A DNA stretch of 33,729 nt from an uncultured Elusimicrobiales bacterium (lineage in GTDB: Bacteria; Elusimicrobiota; Elusimicrobia; Elusimicrobiales; Elusimicrobiaceae). Position 1 is the first letter of the stretch. Each line of letters starts with the position of its first letter. Of the stretch, positions 2,089 to 31,350 are shown piece by piece. The notes below the pieces were generated by a model. It was not told the origin of the DNA and searched no databases. It was given only the letters and a program-made list of their open reading frames with translations. Where the stretch lies: positions 1 to 33,729 of the forward strand of contig CALUVA010000006.1 in assembly GCA_944324105.1 (NCBI GenBank), given 5' to 3'. The position numbers were made by a program, and so were the translations under genes.

Positions 2089-2090
2089 AT

Positions 2091-2423: not shown

Positions 2424-2432
2424 GGAGGATAA

Positions 2433-2960: not shown

Positions 2961-2979
2961 ACGGCGGTGGATATCTTAT

Positions 2980-3013
2980 AACAGGCGGAACAATATTTGT
3001 TCCGCCTGTTTTT
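2980..3013 (+). terminator. rho-independent terminator
   Basis: A perfect 14-bp inverted repeat (2980-2993 with 2997-3010) has a 3-nt loop and runs into five consecutive T's (3009-3013). It lies 20 nt past the last + strand gene and closes the rlmN operon. The convergent ACT gene ends only 20 nt further on, so the hairpin may also help stop transcription from the other side, although the U-tract is poor there. Confidence 0.9.
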
Positions 3014-3032
3014 GTACTCGGTCAAGAAGAGT

Positions 3033-3440: not shown

Positions 3441-3504
3441 GAAAGAAACCTCTTTGCGTCAAACCCTTGCTGCCGGGGCGGCGCGCGGACGCGGCCGCCG
3501 TATG

Positions 3505-4290: not shown

Positions 4291-5774
4291 TTCAGTTTTA
4301 ATATGTCCGCTTCTTTTAATTTATTTTCCAGGTACAACATAGCCTTGCAGTCGTCTTCGTTGTACATCAACACTTTTTGCAGCAGTTCATCCCGGCCGGT
4401 TTTAAGCCAGTTGGTAAAATACACCATGCTGTCCATGGCCCCGCAGTCGTCTTGCCGCCAGTTGAAGCCAAAGGCCGGCGCGGCGGCCTTTAAAGAGAAG
4501 CTCGGCGCGGGCAGGTAAAAAGCCTTCTGTACGGCTACTTTCAAGTCATAGCACAAGCTGACCAACAAATTAAGTTTTTGTTCGTCGTGTTTGTTTTCCA
4601 GCGCCATTTTACGCATTTTTTTGGCCTCGTATTCCGTCCAGTGGTACAGGACGGTGTTTGCGGGGTCTTTAATATAATCGTAAAATTGTTCAAAGATTTT
4701 GATTTCTTCTTCGGGAGTTTTGGCCACAAAGGACACATATTTATCCTCTTCTTTGTCCCAAATGCCGATTAAATAGACAAAAGACTGATTGTCTTTGGTA
4801 AAGGTTTCCGTGGCTTCAAAATCAAAATATAAATTGCGTTTTTTGGCGGGAGGGGGAAAGTGTCCTTCTTCCTTTAATACGGGTTTGTGGCGCAGGTAGG
4901 CCATGGAATTATAATAAGCGTCCGTGGCGTAGGGCTCCTCCAGAATGCCGCGTAATTTTTCCAGCCCGGCGCGGGCTACGTCATCGGTGCTAAACATACC
5001 GTAAATCTTCAGACACTGGCGCATTTCGGCGCTTAAAGCGGGCAGCATTTGCAGGTCCTTGCTTTGTTCCACTATTTTATTGGCGTACACACGCCAGGGA
5101 GGATTGGCCGCCTTGGGGGGCTTATGCGCTTCCGGTTTTGCTTTCCCGTCTCGTATCAGACGGAAATAAGCCAGTTCCCGTGTTAGCCGTTCTTCATGTT
5201 CCAGATAGTCCACTTCTGTGGTTTTACCCTTCAGTTCCACGCGGCAGTAGCGCGGGGTATAACCCTGTATGTCAGCCAGGATATGGTTAAGCAAAGATAC
5301 CTGTAAGGCATAGTGTTCTTTTAAATCGTGTGCCCGCTTGAATTGGACGATACGGTAATGGTAGGGGCCAAATACGCTGTTTCCTTCGTCTACGCGCCGC
5401 AGCAGATTGATGCTGCCGTATATGCTGGCTGGCAGGTTCCACAATGCGGCGTTGGCAATAGCAGGCTTGCCGTCGGCCATGGCGCGCAGGGTGCCTTGGA
5501 ATCGGTCGGTATCATTTGTCGCACTGACAAACTCCACTCCCGGAAAATGCTCCCGTATCCAGGCGTCACGGCTGTTGCGGTCCGTGCGGACTTTTAAGTT
5601 TTCATAACGGTTTAGCTCATTGACTGCTTCTTCCGCCGGTGCATGAAAGGCGCACCAGATACCAAAGGGATCCTCCAGCAGGGAAAACATTTTGGAAGCG
5701 TTAAAATCGGTTTTATCCGGCGTGCGGCCTGCGGAAAAACGCATAAAGAGGGTGTCTGTCAGTGTTTCATCCAT
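4287..5774 (-). CDS. TM0106-like RecB/RNase H-fold protein with degenerate RecB half
   Basis: A 495-residue protein resembling the TM0106 family, which couples an N-terminal RecB-type PD-(D/E)XK nuclease to a C-terminal RNase H-like (DEDD exonuclease) domain. The C-terminal half (about 310-495) keeps its signature acidic residues: Asp318 and Glu320 in YFDFE, and Asp474/Asp475 in YNEDDC. In the N-terminal half the expected acidic residues look replaced (Asn in the GSINLL strand, Gln in the IVQFK strand). The Cys cluster that normally links the halves is absent. I chose the ATG at 5772-5774; the frame stays open to 5972, but the extra 66 residues do not look like protein. No Shine-Dalgarno is present; a TAGAAT hexamer lies 7 nt upstream. 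Function is unknown, perhaps nucleic-acid processing. Confidence 0.8.
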   Translation of the reverse strand: MDETLTDTLFMRFSAGRTPDKTDFNASKMFSLLEDPFGIWCAFHAPAEEAVNELNRYENLKVRTDRNSRDAWIREHFPGVEFVSATNDTDRFQGTLRAMADGKPAIANAALWNLPASIYGSINLLRRVDEGNSVFGPYHYRIVQFKRAHDLKEHYALQVSLLNHILADIQGYTPRYCRVELKGKTTEVDYLEHEERLTRELAYFRLIRDGKAKPEAHKPPKAANPPWRVYANKIVEQSKDLQMLPALSAEMRQCLKIYGMFSTDDVARAGLEKLRGILEEPYATDAYYNSMAYLRHKPVLKEEGHFPPPAKKRNLYFDFEATETFTKDNQSFVYLIGIWDKEEDKYVSFVAKTPEEEIKIFEQFYDYIKDPANTVLYHWTEYEAKKMRKMALENKHDEQKLNLLVSLCYDLKVAVQKAFYLPAPSFSLKAAAPAFGFNWRQDDCGAMDSMVYFTNWLKTGRDELLQKVLMYNEDDCKAMLYLENKLKEADILKLK

Positions 5775-6757: not shown

Positions 6758-9700
6758 ATGAACAATAAAACCAAAGAGCCTATTGCCATTGTCGGCATCG
6801 GCGCCATTATGCCCGGAGCTTTAAATAAAGACGAGTTCTGGCAAAACATTCAAACTGGTAAATATTGCATCACCGAAATCCCCAAATCTTATTGGGACTA
6901 TAAACTTTTCTACAGTCCCGACCATAAAGCCGAAGACAAACTTTATTCCAAAATCGGCGGTTTTATTCCTGAAGGTTTTAAATTTAATTCCATTAAATAC
7001 CGCATTCCGCCGCAGATTGCCAAGCAGATGGACACGGTACAGCACCTGGCCATTGAAACCACGCGCATGGCGCTGGAAGACAGCGGGTATGACAAAAAAG
7101 AATTTAACCGCGACCGCTGTGCGGTCATTGTAGGCAACTCCATGGGCGGCATGAAAAACGAAATGTCCAACACCCGCTTAAACCGCCCCTTCCTCTATGA
7201 AATCTTAAAAGAAACCCCTACTTATAAATCCATGCCTGCGGATGCGGAACAAAAACTGCTGGATGAAATGGACGAAGGGGTTCGCCAAAAGTTTACGCCT
7301 ATCACTGAAGATTCCATGCCCGGCGAGCTGGCCAATGTTATCGCCGGCCGCCTGGCCAATGTCTTTGACGTGCACGGCACCAACTTTACCGTAGACGCCG
7401 CCTGCGCCACTTCGTTGGCCGCTGTGGACCAGGCCGTCAACGGCCTGCGTGAAGGTAATTTTGACATGGCCATCGTGGGCGGTGTGGACCAGATGATGTC
7501 CCCTTCCGCTTACATTAAATTCTGCAAAATTGGCGCGCTGTCCGAAAAAGGTTCCTGCCCCTTTGACGCCAAGGCCGACGGTTTCGTCATGGCCGAAGGC
7601 GCGGGCACGGTCATTTTAAAACGCCTCTCCGACGCCGTCAAAGACGGCGACAAAATCTATGCCGTCATCCGCGCTGTGGGCGCGTCTTCGGACGGCAAGG
7701 GCAAAGGCATTACCGCTCCCAACCCCAAAGGCCAAAAAATCGCCGTACAAAAGGCTTTTGAACAGGTGGAGTACACGCCGGGCGATGTCGGCCTGGTGGA
7801 AGCGCACGGCACCAGCACCCGCGTGGGCGACGCCGTAGAGCTTAACGCCCTGTATGAAATTTTCGGCCCTTACGCCAAACCCGGCACCATCGGTCTGGGC
7901 AGCGTAAAAAGCCAAATCGGCCATGCCAAGGCCGCGGCGGGCATTGCTTCCTTAATTAAGACCTCTTTGGCCTTATATAATAAGGTGTTGCCGCCTTCAG
8001 TCAATTTTGAAACCCCGAACCCGACCGTAGACTGGGCCACCAGCCCTTTCCGCGTGATTACCAAGCTGGAACCGTGGAACACTGACAAGGTGCGCCGCGC
8101 CAATGTATCCGCTTTTGGTTTCGGCGGTACGAACTTCCATGTGGCGCTGGAAGAAATGAACGACGGCCTGCTGAAAAAGACGGAAGACAACAGAGTCTGC
8201 GCCGCCAAAATTTCCAATCCTACCTCCGCCGTACAGGAGCAACAAACCATGAATGCAAATGAGTATAGCCTGCTTGTCCCGGGCGAAAAAATCCAAAGCG
8301 ACGTGCTGACCTTCTCGGCCGACACCAAGCAGGATTTATTCAACGAATTGGGCAAAGCCGTTTTGGCCATTAAATATGACCCGACCTATCTGCCCAGCAT
8401 TTCTTATAAAAACCATATTCAGAAACCCCGCAAATTCGCCGTTTCCATTAACGTGGAAAATCCGGAAAAACTGAAAGAAAAAATTGAATATTTCATCAAA
8501 ATTGCCGGCGGGCAGGATGTATGGGCCCAGGAATCGCTGTATCTGAAAATGAAAGGCATTTATCCGTTTACGCCCAGCGAAAATAAACCCAAAGTTTGCT
8601 TTATGTTCCCGGGTCAGGGCTCGCAGTATGTGGACATGATGAAAGATTTGGCTTCCAAATATAAAGTGGTTATGGATACCTTCATGGAAGCCGACCAGCA
8701 CCTGATTAAAATCATCGGCCAGAACCTGACCGATACATTGTGGAGCAAACCCGGCGAAACCAAGGAGCAGCTGGCCGCGCGGGAAGCCGCTATCAAGAAA
8801 ACCGAAATGACCCAGCCCGCTATGCTGACCGCCGATGTGGCCATGATGCGCCTGCTGTCCTCTTTCGGTCTTAAACCGGACGTAGTCATGGGGCACAGTT
8901 TGGGCGAATACGCCGCCGCCGTGGCCGCTGGTATTTTTGATTTTGAAAACGGTCTCAAAGCCGTCTGCACCCGCGGCAAGGTAATGTCCGAAATTAAAGT
9001 GGAAGACAACGGCAAAATGGCTTCCATTGCCGCCACTGCCGAAGCCGTGGAGCCGCACCTCAAACGCATCAGCGGGTATGTGGCAGTGGCCAATAAAAAC
9101 TGCCCCACCCAGACCGTCATCGCCGGCGCTTCCAAATCCGTGGACGACGCCATTAAAATGTTTACCGATATGGGCATTCAGGCCGTGCAAATCCCGGTGT
9201 CCCACGCTTTCCATTCCGAAATCGTGCGTCCGGCCATGCCGCAGTACCGCGCCTTTTTGGATACGCTGACTTTTAACTCGCCCAAACTGCCCATTACCAC
9301 CAACGTTACGGCGGAATTTTATCCCAATGACCCAGAGAAAATCAAAGATCTCATGGTCACGCAGATTTCCCACTCGGTGGAATGGATTAAACAGCTCAAA
9401 ACCACTTACGATTCCGGCGTGCGCCTGTTTGTGGAATGCGGCCCCAAACGCGTGCTTTCCGCGCTGGCCGCCAGCACGCTGTCTGATAAAAAAGATATTA
9501 AAGTACTGGCCTCTAACCACCCCAAAAAAGGCGGTATTGTGGAGTTCAACGACCTGTTTGCCAACCTGATTTCCTCGGGCATCGCCATTGACTGGAAAGG
9601 CACCGATATCTTTGGCGACAATTCCACCTACAATCCGGCCTTTGTCAAATGGGTGGACGCTTCCGCCACGCCGACTGAAAAGTGCGAAGGCAATATGCCC

Positions 9701-12700
9701 GCCAAAATGGAGCGGCTGCTGGAAGAAGGCGCGGAATGCTCCGTGCGCAAAAATGTGGTCATCAGCGGTATTGCCGCCGGCGGCCCGGGCAGCTGGGACA
9801 AAGTATTCCGCGAAGGCGTGCTGGACGAAATCCTGCAGGGCCGCAATTTGATTGAGCCCGTCAGCAGCGACTGCCAGCAAAAACAAATTGACAAAAATGT
9901 GGAAGTCGTCATCAAATCCAAAGACGGCAATCACCGCATTGAACATTTAAGCTCCGTAGCGCAGGCCGTCAAACTGGCCGCCAAAGCCGGCAGTTTTGAT
10001 TTGGAAAAAGAATTCGGCCTGCCCGCCAAATGGGTGGCGTCCATGGACCGCTGTTTCCAGCTGGCCATCGCCGCCGGTATTTTGGCGCTCAAAGACGCAG
10101 GCATTCCGCTGGTGTTGTATTATAAACCCACTTCCACGGGCGGCTATCTGCCGGACCGCTGGGGCCTGCCGGAAGATATGATAGACAACACGGGCGTGAT
10201 TTTCACTTCCGCCTATCCTATTACCAACAGCATGATGGGGGAATTTGCCCAAAAGCTGACGGCCCTGTTGGAAAACAAAAACGCCAAAGAACTAACCAAA
10301 TTCTATGAAAAATTTATCAACCAGATTTCCGACCCGGCGCTGAAAGCCGAGCTGAAAGCCTGGTACGACAGCGAAATGGCCAAAGTGCCCGCTCTGCAGT
10401 CGTTTACTTCGCAGTTTATTTTAAAGACCATTATCATTGCCCAGTCGCATTTTGCGCAGTGGATCCGCGCCAAAGGGCCCGCCACTTCCATGAGTGCGGC
10501 GTGCGCCAGCACGGCGCAGGCCATTTCCGTGGCGCATGACTGGATACGCCTGGGCCGTGCCAAACGCGTAATCGTTATCAGCGCAGATGATATTACCAAT
10601 GATTCCATTGCCGAATGGATGCTGACGGCCTTCCTGGCCTCCGGCGCCGCCACGACGGAAGCGGACGTGACCAAAGCCGCCCTGCCTTTTGACCGCCGCC
10701 GCAACGGCATGATTGTGGGCATGGGTGCGGTGTCCTTGGTTGTGGAAGAACAGAGCGAAGTGGAAAAACGCGGTATGAAACCGCTGGCCAAACTGCTGGC
10801 CACGGAAATCCGCAACAGCGGCTTCCACGTTACCCGCCTGGATGTGGGGCATGTGGCGCAGGTGATGAATGAGCTGGTTTCCCATGCCGAAAAAGACTTC
10901 GGTTTAAACCGCTCCGACATCGCCAAACAGCTGGTGTTCATTTCCCATGAAACCTATACGCCCGCGCGCGGCGGTTCGGCCAGTGCCGAGGCGTATGCCT
11001 TAAAATCCACCTTCGGCAAAGACGTCAGCTCCGTTATCGTCAGCAATACCAAAGGCTTTACCGGCCACTCCATGGGTGCGGGGCTGGAGGACGCCATTGC
11101 CGTGCGCTGCCTCAACACGGGCATCGTGCCTCCCATTGCCAATTTTAAGGAAGCCGACCCCGAGCTGGAAGGCATTACCTTGAGCAAAGGCGGCCATTAC
11201 GACTTTAAATACGCGCTGCGTCTGGCGGCGGGTTTCGGCTCGCAGATCGGCATGACGCTGCTGGAGAAAATGTGGAGCGTGGGCGACCCGCGCATTTCCG
11301 ATCCGGCCAAACACGAAGCCTGGCTCAAGCAAATTTCCCACCAGGAAAATCCGGTGCTGGAAGTGGAACACAATACCCTGCGCGTAAAAGACAATTACAA
11401 ACACGGTGTCAAACCCTCGCTGGTCATGGAAGGAGCGCAGGCTTTTGTAGATAAAGTCAACGCCATTCATGCCAAAGCGGCTCCGGCTGCGTCTGTAACG
11501 CCTGCGGCCCAGCCCGCACCCGCCGCGGCCCCGGTGGCTGCTGCTCCGGCGGCTGCGCCGAAAGCGGCTCTGCCGAGCCTGAGTGAAGGCGACGTAACCA
11601 AAGATATATTGGCGATTGTGTCCGAAAAGACGGGTTACCCCGAAGACATGCTGGATCTGGACTTGGATATGGAAGCCGACCTGGGCATTGATACGGTCAA
11701 ACAGGCCGAACTGTTCGCCATCATGCGCGAAAAGTATCAGATTGCCAGACAGGAAGGCGTGCAGCTCAAGGACTATCCGACGATTCGCTCCATTATTAAG
11801 TATGCTATCGCCAATGCGGGCAGTGAAGCGGGTGCCGCCTCTGCAGCTCCAGCCGCCGCGCCTGTAACGCCTGCCGTGGCTCCGGTGGCTGCTGCTCCGG
11901 CGGCTGCGCCGAAAGCGGCTCTGCCGAGCCTGAGTGAAGGCGACGTAACCAAAGATATATTGGCGATTGTGTCCGAAAAGACGGGTTACCCCGAAGACAT
12001 GCTGGATCTGGACTTGGATATGGAAGCCGACCTGGGCATTGATACGGTCAAACAGGCCGAACTGTTCGCCATCATGCGCGAAAAGTATCAGATTGCCAGA
12101 CAGGAAGGCGTGCAGCTCAAGGACTATCCGACGATTCGCTCCATTATTAAGTACGCTATGGCCAATGCCGGCACCGAAGGCCAGGCCGCCGCGGCTCCAG
12201 CCGCCGCACCTGCTCCGGCTGCCGCGCCCGTAACGCCTGCGGCCCAGCCTGCTTCTGCCGCGACCCCCGTACAAACGGCGGCTCCGGTGGCTAAACCTGC
12301 TGCGGCCCTGCCGAACTTGGACGAAGCCAGCGTAACCAAAGATATCCTGTCCATCGTAGCCGAAAAGACGGGTTACCCCGAAGACATGCTGGACTTGGAC
12401 TTGGACATGGAAGCTGACCTGGGTATTGATACGGTCAAACAGGCGGAACTCTTCGCCATTATGCGCGAAAAGTATCAGATTGCCAGACAGGAAGGCGTCC
12501 AGCTGAAAGACTATCCGACGATTCGTTCCATTATTAAATATGCTATGGCTAATGCTGGCACTGAAACAGGTGCCGCCTCTGCGGCTGCCGCTCCTGTAAT
12601 GCCTGCGTCCCAGCCCGCGCCTGTCGCGGCCCCCGTGGCTGCTGCTCCGGCGGCTGCGCCGAAAGTGTCCGGTCCGTTGCCGAGCTTGGACGAGGCCAGC

Positions 12701-15700
12701 GTAACCAAAGACATTACGGCGTTAGTGGCTGAAAAAACGGGTTATCCGGAAGACATGCTGGATCTGGACCTGGACATGGAAGCCGACCTGGGCATTGATA
12801 CGGTCAAACAGGCCGAGCTGTTCGCCATTATGCGCGAAAAGTATCAGATTGCCAGACAGGAAGGCGTCCAGCTGAAAGACTATCCGACGATCCGCTCCAT
12901 TATTAAGTACGCTATGGCCAATGCCGGCACCGAAGGCCAGGCCGCCGCGGCTCCAGCCGCTGCGCCTGCTCCGGCTGCCGCGCCCGTAACGCCTGCGGCC
13001 CAGCCCGCGCCTGCCGCGGCCCCTGTGGCTGCTGCTCCGGCGACTGCGCCGAAAGCGTCCGGCCCGCTGCCGAGTTTGGACGAAGCCTCCGTTACGGCGG
13101 ACATTAAAGCCATTGTGGCAGAAAAGACGGGTTACCCCGAAGACATGCTGGATCTGGACCTGGACATGGAAGCCGACCTGGGCATTGATACGGTCAAACA
13201 GGCCGAGCTGTTCGCCATTATGCGCGAAAAGTATCAGATTGCCAGACAGGAAGGCGTCCAGCTCAAAGACTATCCGACGATCCGCTCCATTATTAAGTAT
13301 GCTATGTCCAATGCCGGCACCGAAGGTCAGGCCGCTGCGGCCCCTGCCGCCGCGCCTGCTCCGGCTGCCGCGCCCGTAACGCCTGCGGCCCAGCCCGCGC
13401 CTGCCGCGGCCCCCGTGCAGACGGCGGTCCCGCAAGTGCAGGAAGAGCCTGCCGCCCCTGCCCTGCCCACCATTGAAGTGGACAAAGTGCAGGACGCCGT
13501 GCCGACCGCCGGAAAAGTGGAAAAGCCTTCTGAAGAAATGCTGACCACCAACCCGACCGCACCGATTAAGCCGCATGAGTCTTTGGCCGAACGGCCCGAG
13601 CGCGAAGGGTACGCCGGCGAACACTGCCATGAGAAAAAACTGCGCAGTGTAACCGTCGTGGCGCAGGCCCCGCTGACCGAGCGCGAAAACCGCCGCCTGG
13701 CCAAGGACCGCACCGTGCTGATCTTTGCTGACAATTCCCAGCTCATTAAAGCCTATCAGGAAGAGTTTAAGGAATTGGGCGTCAAAACGCACGTGTTCAC
13801 CACGCTCAAAACCCGCAGCAAAAACACGACTATCGTAAACTGGGAATCTTACGAAGAAACCGAGGCCGCGCTGAAAGAATACGCTGCCGAAGACCCCAAC
13901 ATTCAGGGTATCGTGTACCTGCTGGGTGCGACGGTCAAGAAATTTGACAAGAAAGTCAGCCCGCACAATGAACTGACCAAATACGTCATGCCGCTGTTTA
14001 TTGCGCTGCGCGTATTTGAAAAAGGTCTGTCCAACCGTGCCGACGCCGACACGTTCTTTGCGGTCAACACCAAGATTGACGGTAACTTCGGTTACACGAC
14101 CAAAGATGAGTTTAACCCCATCTCCGGCGCGCTGACCGGCGGCGTTACCTGCTACCGCAAAGACGTGTACGAACGCACCGGCGCCATTTCCAAGCTCATT
14201 GATTTTGAGCCCACGGCCACGCCCGACGAAATGGCCCGCTACACCATGGACGAAGTGCTCCACGGTGATATGCGCCTGATGATCGGTGCGCGTGAAGGCG
14301 GCCGCAGCACCATCCTGTCCGTGCCCGTGCGTTTGGACCGCAGCGAAAAACGCTTTGACCTGGCCGGCAAGACCATTATCTTCACCGGTTCGGGCCGCGG
14401 CATCGGCGCCATGCTCAGCCAGAAAATCGCCGCGCAGTACCACAGCAAAATCATCGTGCTGGACATCATTGAAATCCAGGAAAAGACCCCGCTGTGGGCG
14501 TCCATGAACGAGGCCGAACTGGCCGCGCTGAAGAAGCAAATCTGGGAGGACCTCAAGGCCGACAAGACCCAAAAGGCCACCCCGGTGCTGCTGGAGCGCG
14601 CTTTCGGCCGCGTGAAAGATTCCATCACGCTTTATAACAACCTGCAGAAACTGCGCGAGCTGGGCAGCGAAGTGGAATATTACCACTGCGACGTGATGAA
14701 CAGCTCGATGGTTAAAGAAGTCTGCACGAAGATTAAAGCCAAAAACGGCCGCGTGGACGGAATGATCCACTTTGCCGGACTGGAACGCTCCAAACTCATC
14801 TATGACAAAGACCCCGCGGAATATTACCGCATCTTTGACGTAAAAGCCACGAGTTTTGCCAGCTTCCTGGCCAACAATATCGTGCGCGACGACGGCTTCT
14901 TCGCTTTCGCTTCGTCCATTGCCGGCAAATACGGTAACCTGGGCCAGAGCGATTACGCGTCGGCCAACGACTATTTGGCCAAGTCCGCCTTCTCGCTGAC
15001 CAACCAGGGCTACCGCGCCATCTCCATCGCCATGAGCGCCTACAAGAATGTGGGCATGGGCGTGCGCGCCGGCGTGGAAACCTTCCTCAAATCCAACGGC
15101 GTGGACTTTGTGGATCCCGAAGACGGTATGCAGATATTCCTGGACGAAATCGTGTACGGCGACGTGCCCGAAATCGTGCTGACCGGTTCTCTGGGCCGCC
15201 TGGACTGGGATCACCAGCACCGTTTGGAAATGGATGAAATCGTACCCCGGGGCGCGCAAAACGCGCCCAAGGGCGGCGATAAAGGCGGCAAAGGCGGTTC
15301 TTCTTCCGCCGCGCCCAAAACCGCCGCGGTGGACGTGGCCCTGCCCGACCCGTCGCAGGCCAATCACTTTTTAGGCAAAGTGGCTTCTTTGGAAAAAGGC
15401 AAAGAAATCCACGCCGAAAAAGAATTTAACCTGCAGTCCGATCCGTACCTGGCCGACCACGCCATTGAAGGCACGCCGTATGTGCCGGGCGTGATGGGCA
15501 TTGAAACGTTTATGGAAACGGCGACGGCGCTTTCCGGTTCTGTGCCGCAGGGCTTAAAAGACGTGCATTTTTACCTGCCCATTAAACTGCTGCGCAACCG
15601 ACCCCAGGCCGTACGCGTCATCGGCGCGGAAGCCGGCGGGGATATTTCCATGGAAATAGAGTCCGACTTTATTAACAGCAAAGGCGTTAAAATGGGCAAT

Positions 15701-16210
15701 ACCCGCCGCCACTTTACGGCCAAGGCCCTGCAGAGCGGTTTCGTGTCCACCTGGAATGAGGTTAAAGACCACATTCATTTGGACGTGAACGCCGCCCCGC
15801 AGATTTCCAAAGAGGAAATCTACAAAAAGTATTTCCACGGGCCCAGCTTCCAGGTGCTCGGCGGTATTTTGCGCGCGGACAAAGACAGCTCTTTGGCCGT
15901 CTACAACACCACCCCGCAGCCGCAGTGGAAAGACGGGCAGAAAGTGTTGCTGGCCAACCCGATGCTCATTGAAGCCGCCTTCCAGTGCTGCGGTTTCCGC
16001 GATATGGCCATTGACAACAAAATGACCCTGCCCGACGGCATTAAAGAAGTGGCCGTATTCAAACGCCAGACGCCTCCGCAGAAGCTGTACCTCTACGGGC
16101 GTTTTAAAGGTTTGACCGCCGACGGCAAAACCCTGCACGACGCGTATGTGTTTGACGAAAAAGGCGACGTGTGGGTGGAATTCCACGGCTACCAGGCCAT
16201 CGGCCAGTAA
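6758..16210 (+). CDS. PUFA-synthase-like type I megasynthase: KS-AT-KS-ACP(x5)-KR-DH
   Basis: A 3150-residue cytoplasmic multidomain synthase that should build an acyl or polyketide chain on its own carrier domains. Domains by residue: KS1 6-465 (Cys216, His350, His389, complete). AT 612-905 (GHSLGEY with Ser714; HAFHS with His819, the form usual for malonyl specificity). KS2 997-1505, divergent but with Cys1249, His1397 and His1437 aligned to the triad. Five ACPs 1608-2183 joined by Ala/Pro-rich linkers. KR structural plus catalytic parts 2293-2815 (TGSGRGIG from Thr2543; Ser2720, Tyr2733, Asn2737). Hotdog DH 2868-3145 (HxxxGxxxxP from His2901). No enoyl reductase domain is present. All five ACPs have Thr in place of the expected phosphopantetheine Ser. 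It resembles PfaA-type PUFA synthases but inserts a second KS before the ACPs. The CAGGAG Shine-Dalgarno fixes the start. Product unknown. Confidence 0.93.
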   Translation: MNNKTKEPIAIVGIGAIMPGALNKDEFWQNIQTGKYCITEIPKSYWDYKLFYSPDHKAEDKLYSKIGGFIPEGFKFNSIKYRIPPQIAKQMDTVQHLAIETTRMALEDSGYDKKEFNRDRCAVIVGNSMGGMKNEMSNTRLNRPFLYEILKETPTYKSMPADAEQKLLDEMDEGVRQKFTPITEDSMPGELANVIAGRLANVFDVHGTNFTVDAACATSLAAVDQAVNGLREGNFDMAIVGGVDQMMSPSAYIKFCKIGALSEKGSCPFDAKADGFVMAEGAGTVILKRLSDAVKDGDKIYAVIRAVGASSDGKGKGITAPNPKGQKIAVQKAFEQVEYTPGDVGLVEAHGTSTRVGDAVELNALYEIFGPYAKPGTIGLGSVKSQIGHAKAAAGIASLIKTSLALYNKVLPPSVNFETPNPTVDWATSPFRVITKLEPWNTDKVRRANVSAFGFGGTNFHVALEEMNDGLLKKTEDNRVCAAKISNPTSAVQEQQTMNANEYSLLVPGEKIQSDVLTFSADTKQDLFNELGKAVLAIKYDPTYLPSISYKNHIQKPRKFAVSINVENPEKLKEKIEYFIKIAGGQDVWAQESLYLKMKGIYPFTPSENKPKVCFMFPGQGSQYVDMMKDLASKYKVVMDTFMEADQHLIKIIGQNLTDTLWSKPGETKEQLAAREAAIKKTEMTQPAMLTADVAMMRLLSSFGLKPDVVMGHSLGEYAAAVAAGIFDFENGLKAVCTRGKVMSEIKVEDNGKMASIAATAEAVEPHLKRISGYVAVANKNCPTQTVIAGASKSVDDAIKMFTDMGIQAVQIPVSHAFHSEIVRPAMPQYRAFLDTLTFNSPKLPITTNVTAEFYPNDPEKIKDLMVTQISHSVEWIKQLKTTYDSGVRLFVECGPKRVLSALAASTLSDKKDIKVLASNHPKKGGIVEFNDLFANLISSGIAIDWKGTDIFGDNSTYNPAFVKWVDASATPTEKCEGNMPAKMERLLEEGAECSVRKNVVISGIAAGGPGSWDKVFREGVLDEILQGRNLIEPVSSDCQQKQIDKNVEVVIKSKDGNHRIEHLSSVAQAVKLAAKAGSFDLEKEFGLPAKWVASMDRCFQLAIAAGILALKDAGIPLVLYYKPTSTGGYLPDRWGLPEDMIDNTGVIFTSAYPITNSMMGEFAQKLTALLENKNAKELTKFYEKFINQISDPALKAELKAWYDSEMAKVPALQSFTSQFILKTIIIAQSHFAQWIRAKGPATSMSAACASTAQAISVAHDWIRLGRAKRVIVISADDITNDSIAEWMLTAFLASGAATTEADVTKAALPFDRRRNGMIVGMGAVSLVVEEQSEVEKRGMKPLAKLLATEIRNSGFHVTRLDVGHVAQVMNELVSHAEKDFGLNRSDIAKQLVFISHETYTPARGGSASAEAYALKSTFGKDVSSVIVSNTKGFTGHSMGAGLEDAIAVRCLNTGIVPPIANFKEADPELEGITLSKGGHYDFKYALRLAAGFGSQIGMTLLEKMWSVGDPRISDPAKHEAWLKQISHQENPVLEVEHNTLRVKDNYKHGVKPSLVMEGAQAFVDKVNAIHAKAAPAASVTPAAQPAPAAAPVAAAPAAAPKAALPSLSEGDVTKDILAIVSEKTGYPEDMLDLDLDMEADLGIDTVKQAELFAIMREKYQIARQEGVQLKDYPTIRSIIKYAIANAGSEAGAASAAPAAAPVTPAVAPVAAAPAAAPKAALPSLSEGDVTKDILAIVSEKTGYPEDMLDLDLDMEADLGIDTVKQAELFAIMREKYQIARQEGVQLKDYPTIRSIIKYAMANAGTEGQAAAAPAAAPAPAAAPVTPAAQPASAATPVQTAAPVAKPAAALPNLDEASVTKDILSIVAEKTGYPEDMLDLDLDMEADLGIDTVKQAELFAIMREKYQIARQEGVQLKDYPTIRSIIKYAMANAGTETGAASAAAAPVMPASQPAPVAAPVAAAPAAAPKVSGPLPSLDEASVTKDITALVAEKTGYPEDMLDLDLDMEADLGIDTVKQAELFAIMREKYQIARQEGVQLKDYPTIRSIIKYAMANAGTEGQAAAAPAAAPAPAAAPVTPAAQPAPAAAPVAAAPATAPKASGPLPSLDEASVTADIKAIVAEKTGYPEDMLDLDLDMEADLGIDTVKQAELFAIMREKYQIARQEGVQLKDYPTIRSIIKYAMSNAGTEGQAAAAPAAAPAPAAAPVTPAAQPAPAAAPVQTAVPQVQEEPAAPALPTIEVDKVQDAVPTAGKVEKPSEEMLTTNPTAPIKPHESLAERPEREGYAGEHCHEKKLRSVTVVAQAPLTERENRRLAKDRTVLIFADNSQLIKAYQEEFKELGVKTHVFTTLKTRSKNTTIVNWESYEETEAALKEYAAEDPNIQGIVYLLGATVKKFDKKVSPHNELTKYVMPLFIALRVFEKGLSNRADADTFFAVNTKIDGNFGYTTKDEFNPISGALTGGVTCYRKDVYERTGAISKLIDFEPTATPDEMARYTMDEVLHGDMRLMIGAREGGRSTILSVPVRLDRSEKRFDLAGKTIIFTGSGRGIGAMLSQKIAAQYHSKIIVLDIIEIQEKTPLWASMNEAELAALKKQIWEDLKADKTQKATPVLLERAFGRVKDSITLYNNLQKLRELGSEVEYYHCDVMNSSMVKEVCTKIKAKNGRVDGMIHFAGLERSKLIYDKDPAEYYRIFDVKATSFASFLANNIVRDDGFFAFASSIAGKYGNLGQSDYASANDYLAKSAFSLTNQGYRAISIAMSAYKNVGMGVRAGVETFLKSNGVDFVDPEDGMQIFLDEIVYGDVPEIVLTGSLGRLDWDHQHRLEMDEIVPRGAQNAPKGGDKGGKGGSSSAAPKTAAVDVALPDPSQANHFLGKVASLEKGKEIHAEKEFNLQSDPYLADHAIEGTPYVPGVMGIETFMETATALSGSVPQGLKDVHFYLPIKLLRNRPQAVRVIGAEAGGDISMEIESDFINSKGVKMGNTRRHFTAKALQSGFVSTWNEVKDHIHLDVNAAPQISKEEIYKKYFHGPSFQVLGGILRADKDSSLAVYNTTPQPQWKDGQKVLLANPMLIEAAFQCCGFRDMAIDNKMTLPDGIKEVAVFKRQTPPQKLYLYGRFKGLTADGKTLHDAYVFDEKGDVWVEFHGYQAIGQ
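11531..12153 (+). repeat. exact 272-bp direct repeat covering ACP1 and ACP2
   Basis: Bases 11531-11802 and 11882-12153 appear identical on reading, offset by 351 bp (117 codons), including silent positions and part of the Ala/Pro linker. ACP3 to ACP5 differ at scattered third positions. This is the mark of a very recent in-frame duplication or conversion, and a likely site of copy-number change or assembly error. Confidence 0.85.
11579..13306 (+). repeat. five tandem ACP-coding repeats inside the megasynthase
   Basis: Units lie at 11579-11812, 11930-12163, 12320-12553, 12689-12916 and 13076-13306. Each codes for about 77 residues with the same core (GYPEDMLDLDLDMEADLGID then Thr-Val-Lys-Gln-Ala). 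The Thr codons fall at residues 1646, 1763, 1892, 2015 and 2145. Linkers of about 40-55 residues are almost pure Ala/Pro/Val, as in multi-ACP PUFA synthases, where carrier number raises yield. The units are much more alike than needed for function, which points to recent duplication or gene conversion. Confidence 0.95.
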
Positions 16211-25327: not shown

Positions 25328-26587
25328 TTATCTGGCCAAATTAATAGTTCCCCTTGTCCCGGCTTTCGGAGCTGCGGTCGTAATTCCTTTCAGGCCGGAC
25401 TTTAAGAAAGACGCTTCAGAAGGGGACAGCAAACTCATCTGATGCAGTGCTTCTGCGCCCTGGATGCAAATCTTGCGTAGTTCCTCGTCTTTTTCCATGG
25501 CGGCCAGCTGTTTCGGCGTGGCATTGAGGAACAATCGGAAGTTGGTGTTTATGCGATCGGCCTGCTTCTGCGCATGTACGCTGTGGGCCGAAGCACCTAA
25601 AGCCACCAATAAGGCGATTGCCGGCAGATTTTTGGAGTGGAAAATATGACGGCAAATGGCGACCATGCGTTCAAAGAGTGGCATATTTTTTTCTACACTC
25701 CAACGCATCATATGGCGCATATATTCGCTGGCACTGATTTTGCCTCCTCCGATGGAAACAGACATGCCCTCATCAATAAAATGCATAAATTCTTTGCGTT
25801 GTGCTTCCGTAACGGCCTGCAGCCAAGGTTCTTTTAACAACTGGGCACGTAAGGCGGAACGCTGGGAAGTCGGCAGATTTTTATCGAACAGTTTTTCATA
25901 GACATTCAATTCTTTTTCCCAGTCATAGGAATAGCTAAACATGGTCGTATAATGTCCTTTTTTCTGGTTGAAGCGGACCTGTAACTGCTGCAAATCTTTT
26001 TTTAGTTTCACGATTCTGTTATGCATGACGCGAATGGTCTGAGATTTGTTTGCGGAAATGGAACCGGTTTTTTGGAGCTGTTGGGTCAAAGAGGCAATTT
26101 CTTTTTCTAGTTGGGCAATACGGGCCTGCTGCCAGCCTCTGTCGGTGTTAACCAAGCTGTTGTACTGCTTTTTCCATTTGGAGGCTCTAGAGTTGGCAAT
26201 GCCCAGTTGTTCCTGCAAAGCCCGGTTTTGCTCTTCCAATTGCTGAACCAGCGAATATTGCTGTTGGCGTTCCTGTTTGGCAATTTGCTGATATTTTCTG
26301 CTTGTAACCCGGGCATTATGCAACTGGGTTTCAAAATTTCCCGTTAATTCTTTGATTTGTCTCTTGTGCATGATATGCTGTACAATGCCCAAACCCACTG
26401 CGGTGCCGCCTAAACTCAATAGGGCAATTCCTTCGTTGGAAATCCACGGTGCATGTTGGATGTCTTTTTTGGCGCGTTGTTGATATTGGGCCAAAGTTTG
26501 GGGCTCGGCTGGGACATTTTTCGCAAACAGGGCTTGCTGTCCCAGCAGAGAAAAAGAGAGCAATAAAACAAGAAGTTTACGTATCAT
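25328..26587 (-). CDS. envelope protein with coiled coil, paralog 1 of a three-gene family
   Basis: 419 residues, no family recognised. A signal peptide (about 1-22) is followed by a Gln-rich spacer, a hydrophobic segment (about 52-73) and a long coiled coil (about 74-215). Then come a helical domain with a Gly/Ser loop, a second hydrophobic segment (321-340) ending in an AxA-like site, and a C-terminal domain with the motif LFL..(T)..QL..........C. The same order and motif recur in the next two minus-strand genes. I chose the ATG at 26585-26587, with a GAGG Shine-Dalgarno and the signal peptide at the N-terminus; the longer frame to 26659 is not protein-like. The second hydrophobic segment could be a cleavage site that frees the last 80 residues. 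Own promoter and terminator. Confidence 0.8.
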   Translation of the reverse strand: MIRKLLVLLLSFSLLGQQALFAKNVPAEPQTLAQYQQRAKKDIQHAPWISNEGIALLSLGGTAVGLGIVQHIMHKRQIKELTGNFETQLHNARVTSRKYQQIAKQERQQQYSLVQQLEEQNRALQEQLGIANSRASKWKKQYNSLVNTDRGWQQARIAQLEKEIASLTQQLQKTGSISANKSQTIRVMHNRIVKLKKDLQQLQVRFNQKKGHYTTMFSYSYDWEKELNVYEKLFDKNLPTSQRSALRAQLLKEPWLQAVTEAQRKEFMHFIDEGMSVSIGGGKISASEYMRHMMRWSVEKNMPLFERMVAICRHIFHSKNLPAIALLVALGASAHSVHAQKQADRINTNFRLFLNATPKQLAAMEKDEELRKICIQGAEALHQMSLLSPSEASFLKSGLKGITTAAPKAGTRGTINLAR

Positions 26588-26630
26588 ATTTAATACCTCG
26601 GATAGAATGATCGCATTTATGGATAATCTT

Positions 26631-26659
26631 ATTCTAGAAGTTACAAAAGAGGGGAACAA
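26631..26659 (-). promoter_or_regulatory. promoter of envelope paralog 1
   Basis: On the minus strand TTGTTC (26654-26659), an exact 17-bp spacer and TAGAAT (26631-26636). The -35 is preceded by CCC, as in the promoters of the two sister genes. Confidence 0.65.
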
Positions 26660-26699
26660 GGGTCCTAGGGCCCAAAGTCTTTCTAGGCCTTTTTTTCAT

Positions 26700-27686
26700 T
26701 CAGCGTGCCCGTAAGGGGCGGCGTGGGTATGAAGAATATGCCGGTCGTGTCAACAGGGATTTTTCTTCTTCAGTTAAAGGAGTGGCGGCGAGCAGTTCCA
26801 CGGCCTGCACAATTTGTCTGCAGTAGGATAAGGCCTGAGGATAACGAGCCAGTCGGTGTAGCTGTTCATCCGTCGCATCTAAAAACAGGGCAGGATTTGC
26901 CGCCAGGCGTTCCATGGTCTTATCTGAGAAGGAAGATGAAACCAGTAAATCAGTAACAGCCAGTATACCTGTTACAACCAGCATACGTTTGGCAATGACA
27001 AGGTACAAAGAAGTGCTAGAAGATTGAAAGGCTTTTTGTTCCAAAAATTTTAATGCATTTTGCCTTCCGGATTTCTGTTTACGGAGTACGGCTTCATCTA
27101 ATACTTCTATTAACCCCTGCTGCTCAGATAACGGCAAGCGGCTGATGCGCGGGCGGTAATTTTCCATAATATATTTACTGAGAAATGTTTTGGGTTTTAT
27201 CTCTTTGACTGGTTCGTCAAACAGGGATGGTTGTGCTGGACGAGGTGCCAGCGGCTGGGAAGGTTTATCCAGCCAGGATAAGTCTTTTTGTCCATGACTC
27301 GCGGTGGGAGGCAGGTCAAATAAATCGTCAATTAAACCCCAGCTGCGGCGTTTGGCAAACAAATGCCGTGCCGGACTACGCTCGGCCAGTCCTTTTTCCG
27401 GGAACAAACGGGAGTGGCTTTTGGCGGATGATACAGTTTGCCACATACGCTGCTGTGCCAGTTCCGTTAGGGCAGCCATGGCTGCTGTGCCTGCAGAAAG
27501 AACCAATAGACGACGTATATATACTGCTGTTTCAGGGGATTTTTGCAAAATTTGCTGTGCACGGTTGCGCAATGCCTGCAATTCGGCACTGCGTTGTTGA
27601 AAAGACATAGCCCTGGCTTCGGAAATCGGAGTACAAAGCAACAGTACTGCCAGGCAAAAACATAAAAAACGGTGAATGGAAAGCAT
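26700..27686 (-). CDS. envelope protein, paralog 2 of a three-gene family
   Basis: 328 residues, no family recognised. An N-terminal signal peptide (about 1-26) is followed by a short helical part, a hydrophobic segment (about 57-75), then a Pro/Ser-rich low-complexity linker in place of the long coiled coil of paralog 1. A helical domain follows, then a second hydrophobic segment (about 227-250), and the C-terminal domain with NPALFLDA..EQL and a conserved Cys in the helix after it (motif near 264-290). No Shine-Dalgarno; a TACAAT hexamer lies 5 nt before the ATG with a 17-bp-spaced TTGCAG, which suggests a leaderless message. The C-terminus ends in a basic, Arg/Pro-rich tail. Confidence 0.78.
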   Translation of the reverse strand: MLSIHRFLCFCLAVLLLCTPISEARAMSFQQRSAELQALRNRAQQILQKSPETAVYIRRLLVLSAGTAAMAALTELAQQRMWQTVSSAKSHSRLFPEKGLAERSPARHLFAKRRSWGLIDDLFDLPPTASHGQKDLSWLDKPSQPLAPRPAQPSLFDEPVKEIKPKTFLSKYIMENYRPRISRLPLSEQQGLIEVLDEAVLRKQKSGRQNALKFLEQKAFQSSSTSLYLVIAKRMLVVTGILAVTDLLVSSSFSDKTMERLAANPALFLDATDEQLHRLARYPQALSYCRQIVQAVELLAATPLTEEEKSLLTRPAYSSYPRRPLRAR

Positions 27687-27691
27687 ATTTT

Positions 27692-27720
27692 ATTGTAAGT
27701 AAATCCTTTATCTCCTGCAA
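27692..27720 (-). promoter_or_regulatory. promoter of envelope paralog 2, leaderless layout
   Basis: TTGCAG (27715-27720), an exact 17-bp spacer and TACAAT (27692-27697) on the minus strand, only 5 nt before the ATG. A small GGCCTATAGGCC palindrome lies just upstream, around 27738-27750. Confidence 0.6.
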
Positions 27721-27760
27721 GGGTTATTGGACCTGGCCGGCCTATAGGCCTTTGAATCTT

Positions 27761-27785
27761 AAAAAGCCCCGTCTTAAGACGGGGC
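27761..27785 (-). terminator. rho-independent terminator of envelope paralog 3
   Basis: A 10-bp self-complementary stem (27766-27785, GCCCCGTCTT with its complement). On the minus strand it is followed by five T's. It lies 5 nt past the stop of paralog 3. Because the palindrome has no unpaired loop, the actual hairpin must open a few central pairs. Confidence 0.85.
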
Positions 27786-27790
27786 CAAAA

Positions 27791-28750
27791 TTAACGAACC
27801 AATTGTTTGCGAAGATTTTGCCGAAGCGCCTTTTTTTGAGCTGCTGCTTGTTTGGCCGCATACAATGTAAAGGTTTGGGCTTCTTCATCAGTGAGTTTTA
27901 GACTGTATGCTTGATCTATAACTTCTGCCACTTTGCGGCATAAAGCATTTGCACGGGGATTTTTTTCCCAAGCTTTCAGTTGATCAGCGTCGGCTTGCAG
28001 AAATAAAGCCGGATTTTGTTCCAAACGACTCAATCGTGTCTGGGCTTGGGCATCTGCTGCCGGAAAGGCTAAGGTAAACAACAAAGCCGTGACGGCAAAA
28101 CCTTTAATATATTTCTCCACAGCGATAAAAGCTTGTTTGCGGGTAATGTGAGAAGCCTGCCACGTCAGACGGTTTAAATTCAGCAGGGCTTGGGCCGGTT
28201 TCTGTTTAGCCAACAGATCTACTTCACGTAAAAGGGCTTTTATTTCTTCTTCTGGCATGTTATAGAACAAAGAAGTGTTTTCCGTAAGCAGGCGTTTGGA
28301 TAAATCCGTTTTTGCCGAAGGCATAAATTTTTGAACCAGAGACATTTTGGGCGGTTTGGGGGTAGTGGATTTATTTTTTATCTGCAGGATTTGTTCGGCG
28401 GTCTTGGCACGGTTTTGAGCCTGTTCCAATTTCCAAGCAAGTGCTTCATTACGTGCATACAGACGGGAAGAATAGTGTTGATAGTCTTTGATTGCCTGAG
28501 TTAATTTTTGGGTTTCGGCACGCAGTTGTTTATTTTGGCGTGCCAAACTGAATTGTTTGATAAGTAAAGCCCCGCCTCCGATACCTATTGCCGTTAACGG
28601 CAGTAAATAGCGTTTCATCCATGGAGTCTGAGCAACTTGTTGTTTGGCTTTGGTTTGCACCTGTTGTAACGAAGGAAGCGACTGAGCAAAAGAAGAAGAA
28701 CACAAACTGACGGCTAATAGGCAAGCAATCACGCGGGAAGCTGGTTTCAT
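27791..28750 (-). CDS. envelope protein with coiled coil, paralog 3 of a three-gene family
   Basis: 319 residues, no family recognised. A signal peptide (about 1-22, cleavage after SFA) is followed by a Gln-rich spacer, a hydrophobic segment (about 45-66), a coiled coil (about 67-125) and a basic linker. A helical domain follows, then a second hydrophobic segment (217-236) ending in AADAQA, and the C-terminal domain with NPALFLQA..DQL and the conserved Cys. A GGAGG Shine-Dalgarno before the ATG at 28748-28750 fixes the start; the frame open to 28855 is spurious. It is the closest of the three to paralog 2 in the C-terminal motif and to paralog 1 in overall layout. Own promoter and terminator. 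Confidence 0.8.
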   Translation of the reverse strand: MKPASRVIACLLAVSLCSSSFAQSLPSLQQVQTKAKQQVAQTPWMKRYLLPLTAIGIGGGALLIKQFSLARQNKQLRAETQKLTQAIKDYQHYSSRLYARNEALAWKLEQAQNRAKTAEQILQIKNKSTTPKPPKMSLVQKFMPSAKTDLSKRLLTENTSLFYNMPEEEIKALLREVDLLAKQKPAQALLNLNRLTWQASHITRKQAFIAVEKYIKGFAVTALLFTLAFPAADAQAQTRLSRLEQNPALFLQADADQLKAWEKNPRANALCRKVAEVIDQAYSLKLTDEEAQTFTLYAAKQAAAQKKALRQNLRKQLVR

Positions 28751-28783
28751 AAAACCTCCAAGAGTAAGAGAACTTCTTCTTTT

Positions 28784-28813
28784 ATTATAAGCACAAACGG
28801 AACAAAAAAACAA
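28784..28813 (-). promoter_or_regulatory. promoter of envelope paralog 3
   Basis: On the minus strand TTGTTT (28808-28813), an 18-bp spacer and TATAAT (28784-28789). It is again preceded by CCC at the -35. Confidence 0.6.
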
Positions 28814-28936
28814 GGGCGAAATAATTTCTCCGTCGTAATAAACCCTATATTTCACTGCATAAATTCATTCATGTTTTTGGCGGATAAATCTTGCTGTAAG
28901 GTTGGTATTTTTAGGGAAAGGAATATAAAATTTGAA

Positions 28937-29047: not shown

Positions 29048-29368
29048 TTAGGGTGCAGGGTTTTCTTCCTGCGTTTGTCCTGCCTCTGTTGAAGTATGCC
29101 CAGCCTGTGGATGCTTGGCCCGTTCTTCTTCATAAGCTTTTAGGACATTTTCCTCTAAATAGCGGCGGAACTCCTGGTTAATAGGGTGTACCATGTCTTT
29201 ATGGCTGCCGTCAGGCAGTTTGCGCGAAGGCATACACAAAAACACCCCTTTTGTTCCTTCCACTACTTTCATGTTGCGTACAACAAACGCATCGTCAAAT
29301 GTTACACTCGCAAATGCTTTGAGGCGCTCTTCCCCCATTAAGTGAATACGAATTTCAGTTATTTTCAT
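29048..29368 (-). CDS. spoVG: SpoVG family regulatory protein
   Basis: Small nucleic-acid-binding regulator of 106 residues. SpoVG in Bacillus affects septation, and in Borrelia and Staphylococcus it binds DNA or RNA. The conserved core is clear: MKITEIRI at the start, the LKAFASVTFDD strand, FVVRNMKVVEG and the basic MPSRK...KDMVHPI surface. The last about 20 residues are a low-complexity acidic/polar tail. It overlaps the ispE stop by 14 nt, with a GGAGGG Shine-Dalgarno inside ispE, so the two are coupled. The ispE/spoVG proximity also occurs in Firmicutes. Confidence 0.95.
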   Translation of the reverse strand: MKITEIRIHLMGEERLKAFASVTFDDAFVVRNMKVVEGTKGVFLCMPSRKLPDGSHKDMVHPINQEFRRYLEENVLKAYEEERAKHPQAGHTSTEAGQTQEENPAP

Positions 29369-30257
29369 CCTGGCTCCCTCCGAAACGTACGGTGAATACT
29401 TTTCGTCCCTTTTGTTTTATTCTCCCTGCCAAATCTTCGGCCTGGTCCCGGTCGGGGGTTAAAGCGAAAACGGTGGAGCCGGAACCGGACATCAACGGAC
29501 TTGCGCCCAAAGCGAGAAAGTCTTCTTTTACGTTGCGTACGGAACTAACAAACGGCAATACCGCTTCCTCCAGTCTGTTAAACAACAAAGGTTGCCAGTC
29601 TGCCGGAGGAAGACCCTGGCGTATGTACTCTATTAATTTATCTAAATTGGAAAGGCTTGTCAAGACGGTCTGACGCGTCGGTAGACGCAGGCGCCCGAAT
29701 ACCCCCTTGGTGGGCACCGGTGTGTTCGGGTATACCAATACAGCCCAAGGAAGCAAACCAGGTGCAGAAAGCGGGCTCAGTTTGTCTCCAATTCCTTCCC
29801 CTTTTAAAAAACTGTCGGAATATAAGAACAGCGGCACGTCCGCTCCCAGACGTGCGGCTTCTGGAAGCAGTTCCAGCGGATTTTTTTCAAATAGCTGACA
29901 CAGCCCTCGCAGTACGGTGCCTGCGTCGGAGGAGCCCCCTCCCAAGCCGGCGCCAAAAGGGATATTTTTTTCCAAACGGATATGTACGCGCAAAGTCAAG
30001 CCAAAATGTGCCGCAAAAACCCGTACAGCACGCAAAGCCAAATTGTCATCGCCACAACTAAGACCTTCTGCTAAAGGCCCCTGCAAATCCAGCCAAAAGT
30101 CTTCGTTGTCCGAAGTTTCCGCGTCTAATTCTATATGGTCGGCCAAAGACACTTTGGCAAATAGGGTAGATAACTCATGGTAACCGTCTGATCTTTTGCC
30201 AGTAACTTCTAAAAATAAGTTAATTTTGGCCGGGGCCTGCAGTGTTATGTGAGCCAT
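29355..30257 (-). CDS. ispE: 4-diphosphocytidyl-2-C-methyl-D-erythritol kinase
   Basis: Phosphorylates CDP-methylerythritol in the MEP isoprenoid pathway; cytoplasmic GHMP kinase of 300 residues, normal length. Lys11 in the APAKINL motif, the glycine-rich ATP loop GLGGGSSDAG (105-114 region) and the catalytic Asp140 (LGADVP) are present. I prefer the ATG at 30255-30257 (MAHITL), because a TACAAT hexamer lies 7 nt upstream with no Shine-Dalgarno, which fits a leaderless start. An in-frame ATG 9 nt further upstream (30266) would add only three residues and overlaps that hexamer. It heads the ispE-spoVG-tRNA-Gln transcript. Confidence 0.95.
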   Translation of the reverse strand: MAHITLQAPAKINLFLEVTGKRSDGYHELSTLFAKVSLADHIELDAETSDNEDFWLDLQGPLAEGLSCGDDNLALRAVRVFAAHFGLTLRVHIRLEKNIPFGAGLGGGSSDAGTVLRGLCQLFEKNPLELLPEAARLGADVPLFLYSDSFLKGEGIGDKLSPLSAPGLLPWAVLVYPNTPVPTKGVFGRLRLPTRQTVLTSLSNLDKLIEYIRQGLPPADWQPLLFNRLEEAVLPFVSSVRNVKEDFLALGASPLMSGSGSTVFALTPDRDQAEDLAGRIKQKGRKVFTVRFGGSQDENN

Positions 30258-30264
30258 ATATATC

Positions 30265-30270
30265 ATTGTA
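30265..30270 (-). promoter_or_regulatory. candidate -10 element for ispE, leaderless layout
   Basis: TACAAT on the minus strand, 7 nt before the chosen ATG. The -35 region is not close to consensus. The divergent surface-protein gene starts about 100 nt away, so the region 30271-30373 also holds that gene's promoter; I see AT-rich -10-like stretches but no clear pair. Confidence 0.4.
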
Positions 30271-30373
30271 TCTTTTTATGGTCGGAGAGAAAAAGTTTTT
30301 TCGTGTATTGTGCAATAAATATATATCTAAGTGTGTATTAAAAATGAGCAGAAGTATGAAATGGAGGGGAAAT

Positions 30374-31288
30374 ATGAGGATATTTTTTGGGATAGGGGCA
30401 GTGTTGCTTTTTTCGTACCCGGTATATGCGGAAAACAATATTCGAATGGTTACTTATTTCCCGGTTCCGTATGTATCTTATAATGATTTAGAAGTTGTGG
30501 GCACCTGTGATGCCGGGTTGATGGATGTGTGTAATTTGGAGATAGGGAACGAATTGAAAGTTTTTACAAAGAATAACGATAGCAGAGATTTAAATACCGG
30601 CAGTTTGATTGTATAAACCGGTAAATTGGAATTAAACTCCGATTTGTCTGAATCGGTAGTAGATGGAGTCAGTATATTTGCCGGGGAAACCTCTTCTGAA
30701 GAAGGCGTACTGGAATTTGCCCATAATCTGGAAGTAGCGAATATAGATGGAGAGGAAATTCAAAGCGCACAAGCTCAGAATATAGCTTATCTGAAAAATA
30801 TGACATTGTTCGGGGAGGAGTTCCCTTACTGTGATGCGTCGGGTAATGAAATCAGCTGGCAGGAGCTGACTATAAACGGGGAAAACGGCGTATTTCTGGT
30901 ATGCGGAACGGGGGAGAGCTATGAAGTTTCCTGTGAAGATGAGCCTGAACAGGAAAAATGCTGTTCCGGATGCGAAACTTGGGACGGCAGCAGCTGTGTA
31001 CAGAAAACTTGTTCCAGCGGATATGAACTTAATGAATCTACCTGTCAGTGTGAGGCGACAGAAGATGACGACGAATCTGTTACCGCTGGCGTATGGGAGA
31101 AAGGGCTGTCTGTTTCTGGCGGCTGGAGATGCGATAGCAGCTGCAATATTATTTTCGACCCGGAAGACGCCAGTTATAACATTCCGCAAGGTTCTTGTTC
31201 TCCGATAGGAAAGGTCCGCTATGTGGTAAATGACGTAATGGATTCCGTTGCTTGCAGTAGTCTGGGGTCGGGAATTGGCAAGTTGTGA
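30374..31288 (+). pseudogene. secreted surface-type protein gene interrupted by an in-frame TAA
   Basis: A GGAGGGG Shine-Dalgarno precedes ATG 30374. The product starts with a signal peptide (cleavage after VYA, about residue 18), then a conserved-looking segment with MVTYFPVPY and YNDLEVVGTCDAG, suggestive of a repeated beta-structured surface or pilus-associated protein. A TAA at 30614-30616 stops it after 80 residues. The same frame resumes at once (Thr-Gly-Lys-Leu) and runs 224 codons more, through a beta-type region, a Cys-rich EGF-like stretch with spaced Cys pairs, and a C-terminal Cys-containing domain, to TGA 31286-31288. The second part has no start with a Shine-Dalgarno (only a TTG at 30626). 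The frame is kept across the stop, so this looks like a recent nonsense change, sequencing error or read-through. Family not recognised. Confidence 0.7.
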
Positions 31289-31350
31289 GAATGGATAAAT
31301 ATGTTTGTACGGAACAATAAAACATATGATCTCTAAAAGCTGTATAATTA

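What the first reader, a model, noticed from the sequence alone, without database searches (positions are those of the whole stretch)
30374..31288. Surface-protein gene split by one in-frame TAA with the frame kept on both sides
The first 80 codons have a good ribosome site and signal peptide. The next 224 codons continue in the same frame, with structured Cys-rich content and no own start signal. The sequence on either side of the TAA looks like one continuous beta region (TGSLIV, stop, TGKLEL). Options are a very recent nonsense change, phase or strain variation, sequencing error, or read-through.
Basis: seen in the sequence. Interest (0 to 1): 0.58.

Follow-up and report, generated by a model that had tools for sequence, protein, structure and literature searches.

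The report
Broken copy of a surface-protein gene
In a gut bacterium, one gene of a multi-copy secreted-protein family carries a premature stop and a second frame-breaking change near its end, so it is most likely an ordinary, recently broken gene, not a hidden decoding signal.

Summary
An ORF at 30374 has a ribosome site and signal peptide, hits TAA at 30614-30616 after 80 codons, and continues in frame for 223 codons to 31288. The two parts are one gene. The syntenic copy in Ca. Avelusimicrobium excrementipullorum, also divergent from ispE, is an intact 316-aa protein that aligns through the stop without a gap. The family occurs in 63 of 66 genomes of the genus; of 109 matches, the window's is the only one with an internal stop (88 span the site). 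All 11 aligned relatives have a sense codon there, Lys or Arg in 9. Two lesions in one gene, while 24 other window ORFs are open, favour a recent pseudogene over sequencing error or read-through. Pairwise dN/dS is alike on both sides of the stop (0.25, 0.19, 0.23), so the loss is young. Reads or conspecific genomes were not available.

The parts
30363..30369 (+). ribosome-binding site GGAGGGG, 4 bases before the ATG
   Evidence: read
30374..30613 (+). 5' part of the gene: signal peptide and the first part of the conserved family domain (motif IRMVTYFPVPYVSY), 80 codons
30614..30616 (+). premature in-frame TAA at a column that is a sense codon in all 11 aligned relatives (Lys or Arg in 9)
30617..30907 (+). 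rest of the conserved family domain, in the same frame (ends ...GVFLVCG)
30908..31266 (+). Cys-rich C-terminal tail shared with the syntenic copy in Ca. A. excrementipullorum
31258..31267 (+). second lesion (approximate place): net length change that is not a multiple of three relative to the syntenic copy
31267..31320 (+). conserved C-terminal end of the tail (VGNWQVVRMDKYVCTEQ and stop), now out of frame
   Evidence: counterpart in frame in G001:C3 and G001:C77
31286..31288 (+). TGA met because of the frame change; not the family's natural end
29355..30266 (-). divergent neighbour, named ispE-like from recall, not from a family search; anchors synteny with G001:C3

Best explanation
A recently inactivated copy (pseudogene, or a null allele in this strain) of a multi-copy family of secreted, probably surface-exposed proteins of the Elusimicrobiota genus Avelusimicrobium. 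Shown: one ancestral gene; an intact syntenic relative; a premature TAA unique among relatives; a second frame-breaking change near the 3' end. Inferred: ribosomes initiate at 30374 and terminate at the TAA, giving an 80-residue fragment (about 60 after signal cleavage) without most of the conserved domain and without the Cys-rich tail. The downstream part is not translated for lack of a start site. The loss is tolerated because the genome holds other copies (an intact one on C12 and one cut by a contig end on C113). The order of the two lesions is unknown.
For: Stop unique: 1 of 109 family matches in 66 genomes carries an internal stop; 88 of the 109 span the site. Sense codon in 11 of 11 relatives in alignment A1. 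Intact syntenic 316-aa protein in G001, named Ca. A. excrementipullorum. Second lesion: the out-of-frame end still reads like the conserved end, which two other sequences keep in frame. Other broken copies exist in the genus: a frameshifted one in G047, and in G001 a copy lacking its first 71 positions and a tail-only fragment. Other family copies in the same genome. Pairwise dN/dS alike before and after the stop (0.25, 0.19, 0.23), as expected if nearly all divergence predates a young lesion.
Against: Low dN/dS after the stop and only 4 of 38 family-conserved positions changed (range 0 to 8 among the 11 intact relatives) would also fit a sequence still under selection, or an error in the consensus. 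dS is about 1.6, close to saturation, so the ratios are rough. The 3' lesion rests mainly on one syntenic relative, and tails vary freely in this family, so an altered tail end could have been tolerated on its own. No reads were seen.
Confidence: 0.8

Rival explanations
1. Assembly or consensus error in a fragmented metagenome-assembled genome; the true gene is intact.
For: G000 is a 125-contig assembly, 80.8% complete. Spurious pseudogenes from assembly are documented (PMC11017572, abstract seen). The frame after the stop is well conserved.
Against: It needs two independent errors of different kinds in one 0.95-kb gene, while 24 other window ORFs, chosen by me as likely genes, are open. The frameshift is not in a long homopolymer.
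Confidence: 0.1
2. Programmed or leaky read-through of the TAA makes a full-length protein (recoding).
For: Frame and conserved residues continue after the stop; dN/dS after the stop below 1. In-frame stops with dN/dS below 1 have been read as read-through in prokaryotes (PMC7918605, passages seen).
Against: The stop is in no other family member. TAA is a normal terminator here (14 of 24 ORFs). A read-through product would still lack the conserved C-terminus because of the frame change. The two tRNAs in the window are Arg and Gln with ordinary anticodons (the rest of the genome was not scanned).
Confidence: 0.03
3. Strain-level on/off variation of this surface protein, the window showing an off allele.
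For: Variable multi-copy secreted family. A young stop is what a segregating null allele looks like.
Against: No simple repeat, invertible segment or recombinase was noticed next to the gene by reading (no repeat finder was run), and two separate lesions do not revert together.
Confidence: 0.05
4. The short 80-codon product, or a separately started 220-aa product, is itself functional.
For: Good ribosome site and signal peptide for the first part.
Against: No family member in A1 ends there. Short-tailed members end after the whole conserved domain instead (L010, L016; L061, L063). No ribosome site or signal peptide precedes the second part.
Confidence: 0.02

Closest known systems
Syntenic protein of Ca. 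Avelusimicrobium excrementipullorum CHK136-6324 (DWVB01000052.1; L002/L056, 316 aa)
   Same: Same place divergent from the ispE-like gene; same domain and same Cys-rich tail; 57% identity over the conserved domain
   Different: Intact: no internal stop, and the tail end is in frame
MVTYFPVPY secreted-protein family of Avelusimicrobium (no name; no Pfam or NCBIfam match reached its cut-off)
   Same: Signal peptide, conserved domain of about 180 aa, usually a variable Cys-rich tail
   Different: The window copy is the only one of 109 matches with an internal stop
Ordinary bacterial pseudogenes by nonsense and frameshift mutation
   Same: Two disabling changes, intact relatives, redundant copies
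   Different: Nothing beyond the lineage-specific family involved

Membership tests
pseudogene / broken gene | disabling change relative to an intact relative | tested here: met
   TAA against sense codons in 11 of 11 relatives; frame change at the 3' end
pseudogene / broken gene | more than one independent lesion | tested here: met
   nonsense codon plus 3' frame change; the second rests mainly on one syntenic relative
pseudogene / broken gene | relaxed selection in the broken lineage | tested here: inconclusive
   dN/dS alike on both sides of the stop; 4 of 38 conserved positions changed against 0 of 37 in the syntenic relative, but other intact members show 2 to 8
pseudogene / broken gene | no full-length product | not testable with these tools
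   needs proteomics
programmed read-through / recoding | stop conserved among relatives at the site | tested here: not met
   1 of 109 matches in 66 genomes of the genus; also the only row with a stop among those listed for 294 genomes of the phylum
alternative genetic code with TAA as sense | TAA not used to end genes | tested here: not met
   14 of 24 window ORFs end in TAA
MVTYFPVPY secreted family | signal peptide plus the conserved 180-position domain | tested here: met
   model positions 1-180, E 1.7e-64, through the TAA; signal peptide by eye
5-fold beta-flower proteins (Pfam PF21785) | score above the Pfam cut-off | tested here: not met
   14.5 bits against a cut-off of 38 for the window's second part; no hit for four intact relatives

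The most novel reading that the evidence does not exclude
The family behaves like a mosaic antigen system: copies in one genome keep near-identical conserved domains but carry unrelated Cys-rich tails, apparently homogenised by gene conversion. Broken copies such as the window gene, and tail-only fragments, would then serve as silent stores of tails that can be recombined onto an expressed copy.
Probability: 0.07. Interest if true: 0.55.

Novelty: new member of a known kind. Interest (0 to 1): 0.14.

Why it matters
As a stop-codon finding it is ordinary: a young pseudogene. It corrects a tempting read-through or phase-variation reading. It also points to a fast-evolving, multi-copy secreted-protein family of gut Elusimicrobiota with no Pfam or NCBIfam match, whose tails vary strongly between near-identical copies; that family may deserve study in its own right.

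Tried and rejected
Pfam and NCBIfam searches gave nothing above a cut-off. A profile search of solved structures gave nothing better than E 0.19. Two AlphaFold2 models, of the intact relative (mean pLDDT 53.4) and of the conserved domain alone (48.3), were too poor to search, so no fold search was made. Paper searches: 'Avelusimicrobium' gave 2 papers, of which only the listing was seen; Elusimicrobia with surface protein and pseudogene gave 3, listing only; a general search on Elusimicrobium minutum gave 78 and one on stops and pseudogenes gave 236, 8 of each listed. None was seen to describe this gene or family; that is a statement about these listings only.

Rejected: alternative code (14 of 24 ORFs end in TAA); stop conserved in the family; a separate downstream gene (no ribosome site). 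One search listed two other rows with stops (L016: TGA and TAA; L010: TAA). These lie past the end of the conserved domain of short-tailed members, so they are natural ends. G041:C30 looked split, but the gap is N letters, so I do not count it as broken. Of the 47 loci, 42 were read; L091, L092, L096, L101 and L102, which are short partial matches, were left out. One of the 42 (L093, the same copy as G047:C3) has stops in its match, from a frameshift.

Full report
The ORF from 30374 has GGAGGGG four bases before its ATG and a signal-peptide-like start. It meets TAA at 30614-30616 after 80 codons and goes on in the same frame for 223 codons to a TGA at 31286-31288. The window is contig C6 of genome G000, a 1.32-Mb assembly in 125 contigs, 80.8% complete.

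One gene, not two. The second part alone finds relatives whose ORFs run from a signal peptide straight through. The closest by place is G001:C3, which names as Candidatus Avelusimicrobium excrementipullorum CHK136-6324. It too lies divergent from the ispE-like gene, and the flanking genes between 20.7 and 30.3 kb of the window match that contig in order. It encodes an intact 316-aa protein that aligns with the window gene across the TAA without a gap.

The stop is peculiar to the window. In an alignment of 11 relatives the column holds a sense codon in every row: Lys or Arg in 9, Thr in 1 and Gln in 1. A model of the conserved 180-position domain finds the family in 63 of 66 genomes of the genus, 109 matches in all. 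The window's is the only one with a stop inside the domain. By my tally 70 matches cover at least 150 positions and 88 span the site. In 294 genomes of the phylum, 75 have a match, in 7 of 90 genera, and again no other listed row has a stop. TAA is an ordinary terminator here: 14 of 24 ORFs that I took as likely genes end with it.

A second lesion. In the DNA alignment with G001 the window has a net length change near 31260 that is not a multiple of three. Beyond it the window still encodes VGNWQVVRMDKYVCTEQ and a stop at 31267-31320, but in another frame. The relative reads IGNWQIADMTKYVCVAEE in its main frame, and a tail-only fragment at G001:C77 ends NWMVADMNKYVCK. So the TGA at 31286 is a by-product, and reading through the TAA would not restore the family's C-terminus. 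Caveat: tails vary freely in this family, and the tail of this type was found in 2 of 66 genomes, this one and G001.

Timing and selection. Against G001, dN/dS is 0.25 for the 80 codons before the stop, 0.19 for 99 aligned codons after it and 0.23 for 102 aligned codons of the tail. dS is near 1.6, so these are rough. The likeness of the values says that nearly all divergence arose while the gene was coding, so the loss is young; it does not show selection today. At positions conserved in at least 80% of the other rows the window departs at 4 of 38, the syntenic relative at 0 of 37, and the other ten intact members at 2 to 8 of 39 to 43. That is inconclusive for relaxation.

Reading. A young pseudogene, or a null allele, in a multi-copy family is the simplest account. 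G000 holds a full copy on C12 and a piece at the end of C113. Other members are also broken elsewhere: a frameshifted copy in G047; in G001 a copy that lacks its first 71 model positions within a contig and a tail-only fragment just after another gene. An assembly error remains possible. PMC11017572 (abstract seen) reports that many purported pseudogenes are assembly errors, but two different errors in one gene are less likely than two real lesions. PMC7918605 (passages seen) argues that in-frame stops with dN/dS below 1 can reflect read-through, often short-lived. The absence of this stop from all relatives and the second lesion speak against that here.

What the protein is. No Pfam or NCBIfam model reached its cut-off for it, no solved structure is close by sequence, and the predicted models are unreliable. 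Signal peptide and Cys-rich tail suggest a secreted or surface protein; that is inference. Tandem copies in G050 and G047 keep 93-97% identical DNA over the conserved domain and carry unrelated tails, and tail modules recur on other proteins. That pattern suggests a mosaic family. It is the most interesting thing seen here, but it is not established.

Noticed in passing
L109 (G050:C2:193000-199000) 815-1909, 2039-3307, 3421-4488; L110 (G047:C4:8500-13000) 834-1901, 2125-3162: Tandem family copies with 93-97% identical DNA over the conserved domain but unrelated Cys-rich tails, as if the domain is homogenised and tails are exchanged.
   Followed up: partly
G041 and G020 contig ends (rows): Several copies stop at contig ends within the conserved domain, as expected if near-identical copies break the assembly.
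   Followed up: no
L013, L017: Cys-rich tail modules (NPNQEKCC..WDGSQCV) resembling those of this family sit on a protein with a prepilin-like start; the prepilin reading is by eye.
   Followed up: no
L020 (G001:C77) around 1500-1860: Tail-only fragment of the same type as the window's tail, directly after the terminator-like end of another gene.
   Followed up: partly
L106 998-1992 (G047:C3): Another family copy broken by a frameshift, in a less fragmented assembly.
   Followed up: partly
window 6758-16210: 3150-aa multidomain protein with several repeated, near-identical carrier-like segments and synthase-like parts; looks like a polyunsaturated fatty acid or polyketide type synthase (by eye, not searched).
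   Followed up: no
window 25328-28855 (minus): Three neighbouring ORFs with similar layout (signal peptide, ending in a stretch like NPALFLxAxxxQL), probably paralogs.
   Followed up: no
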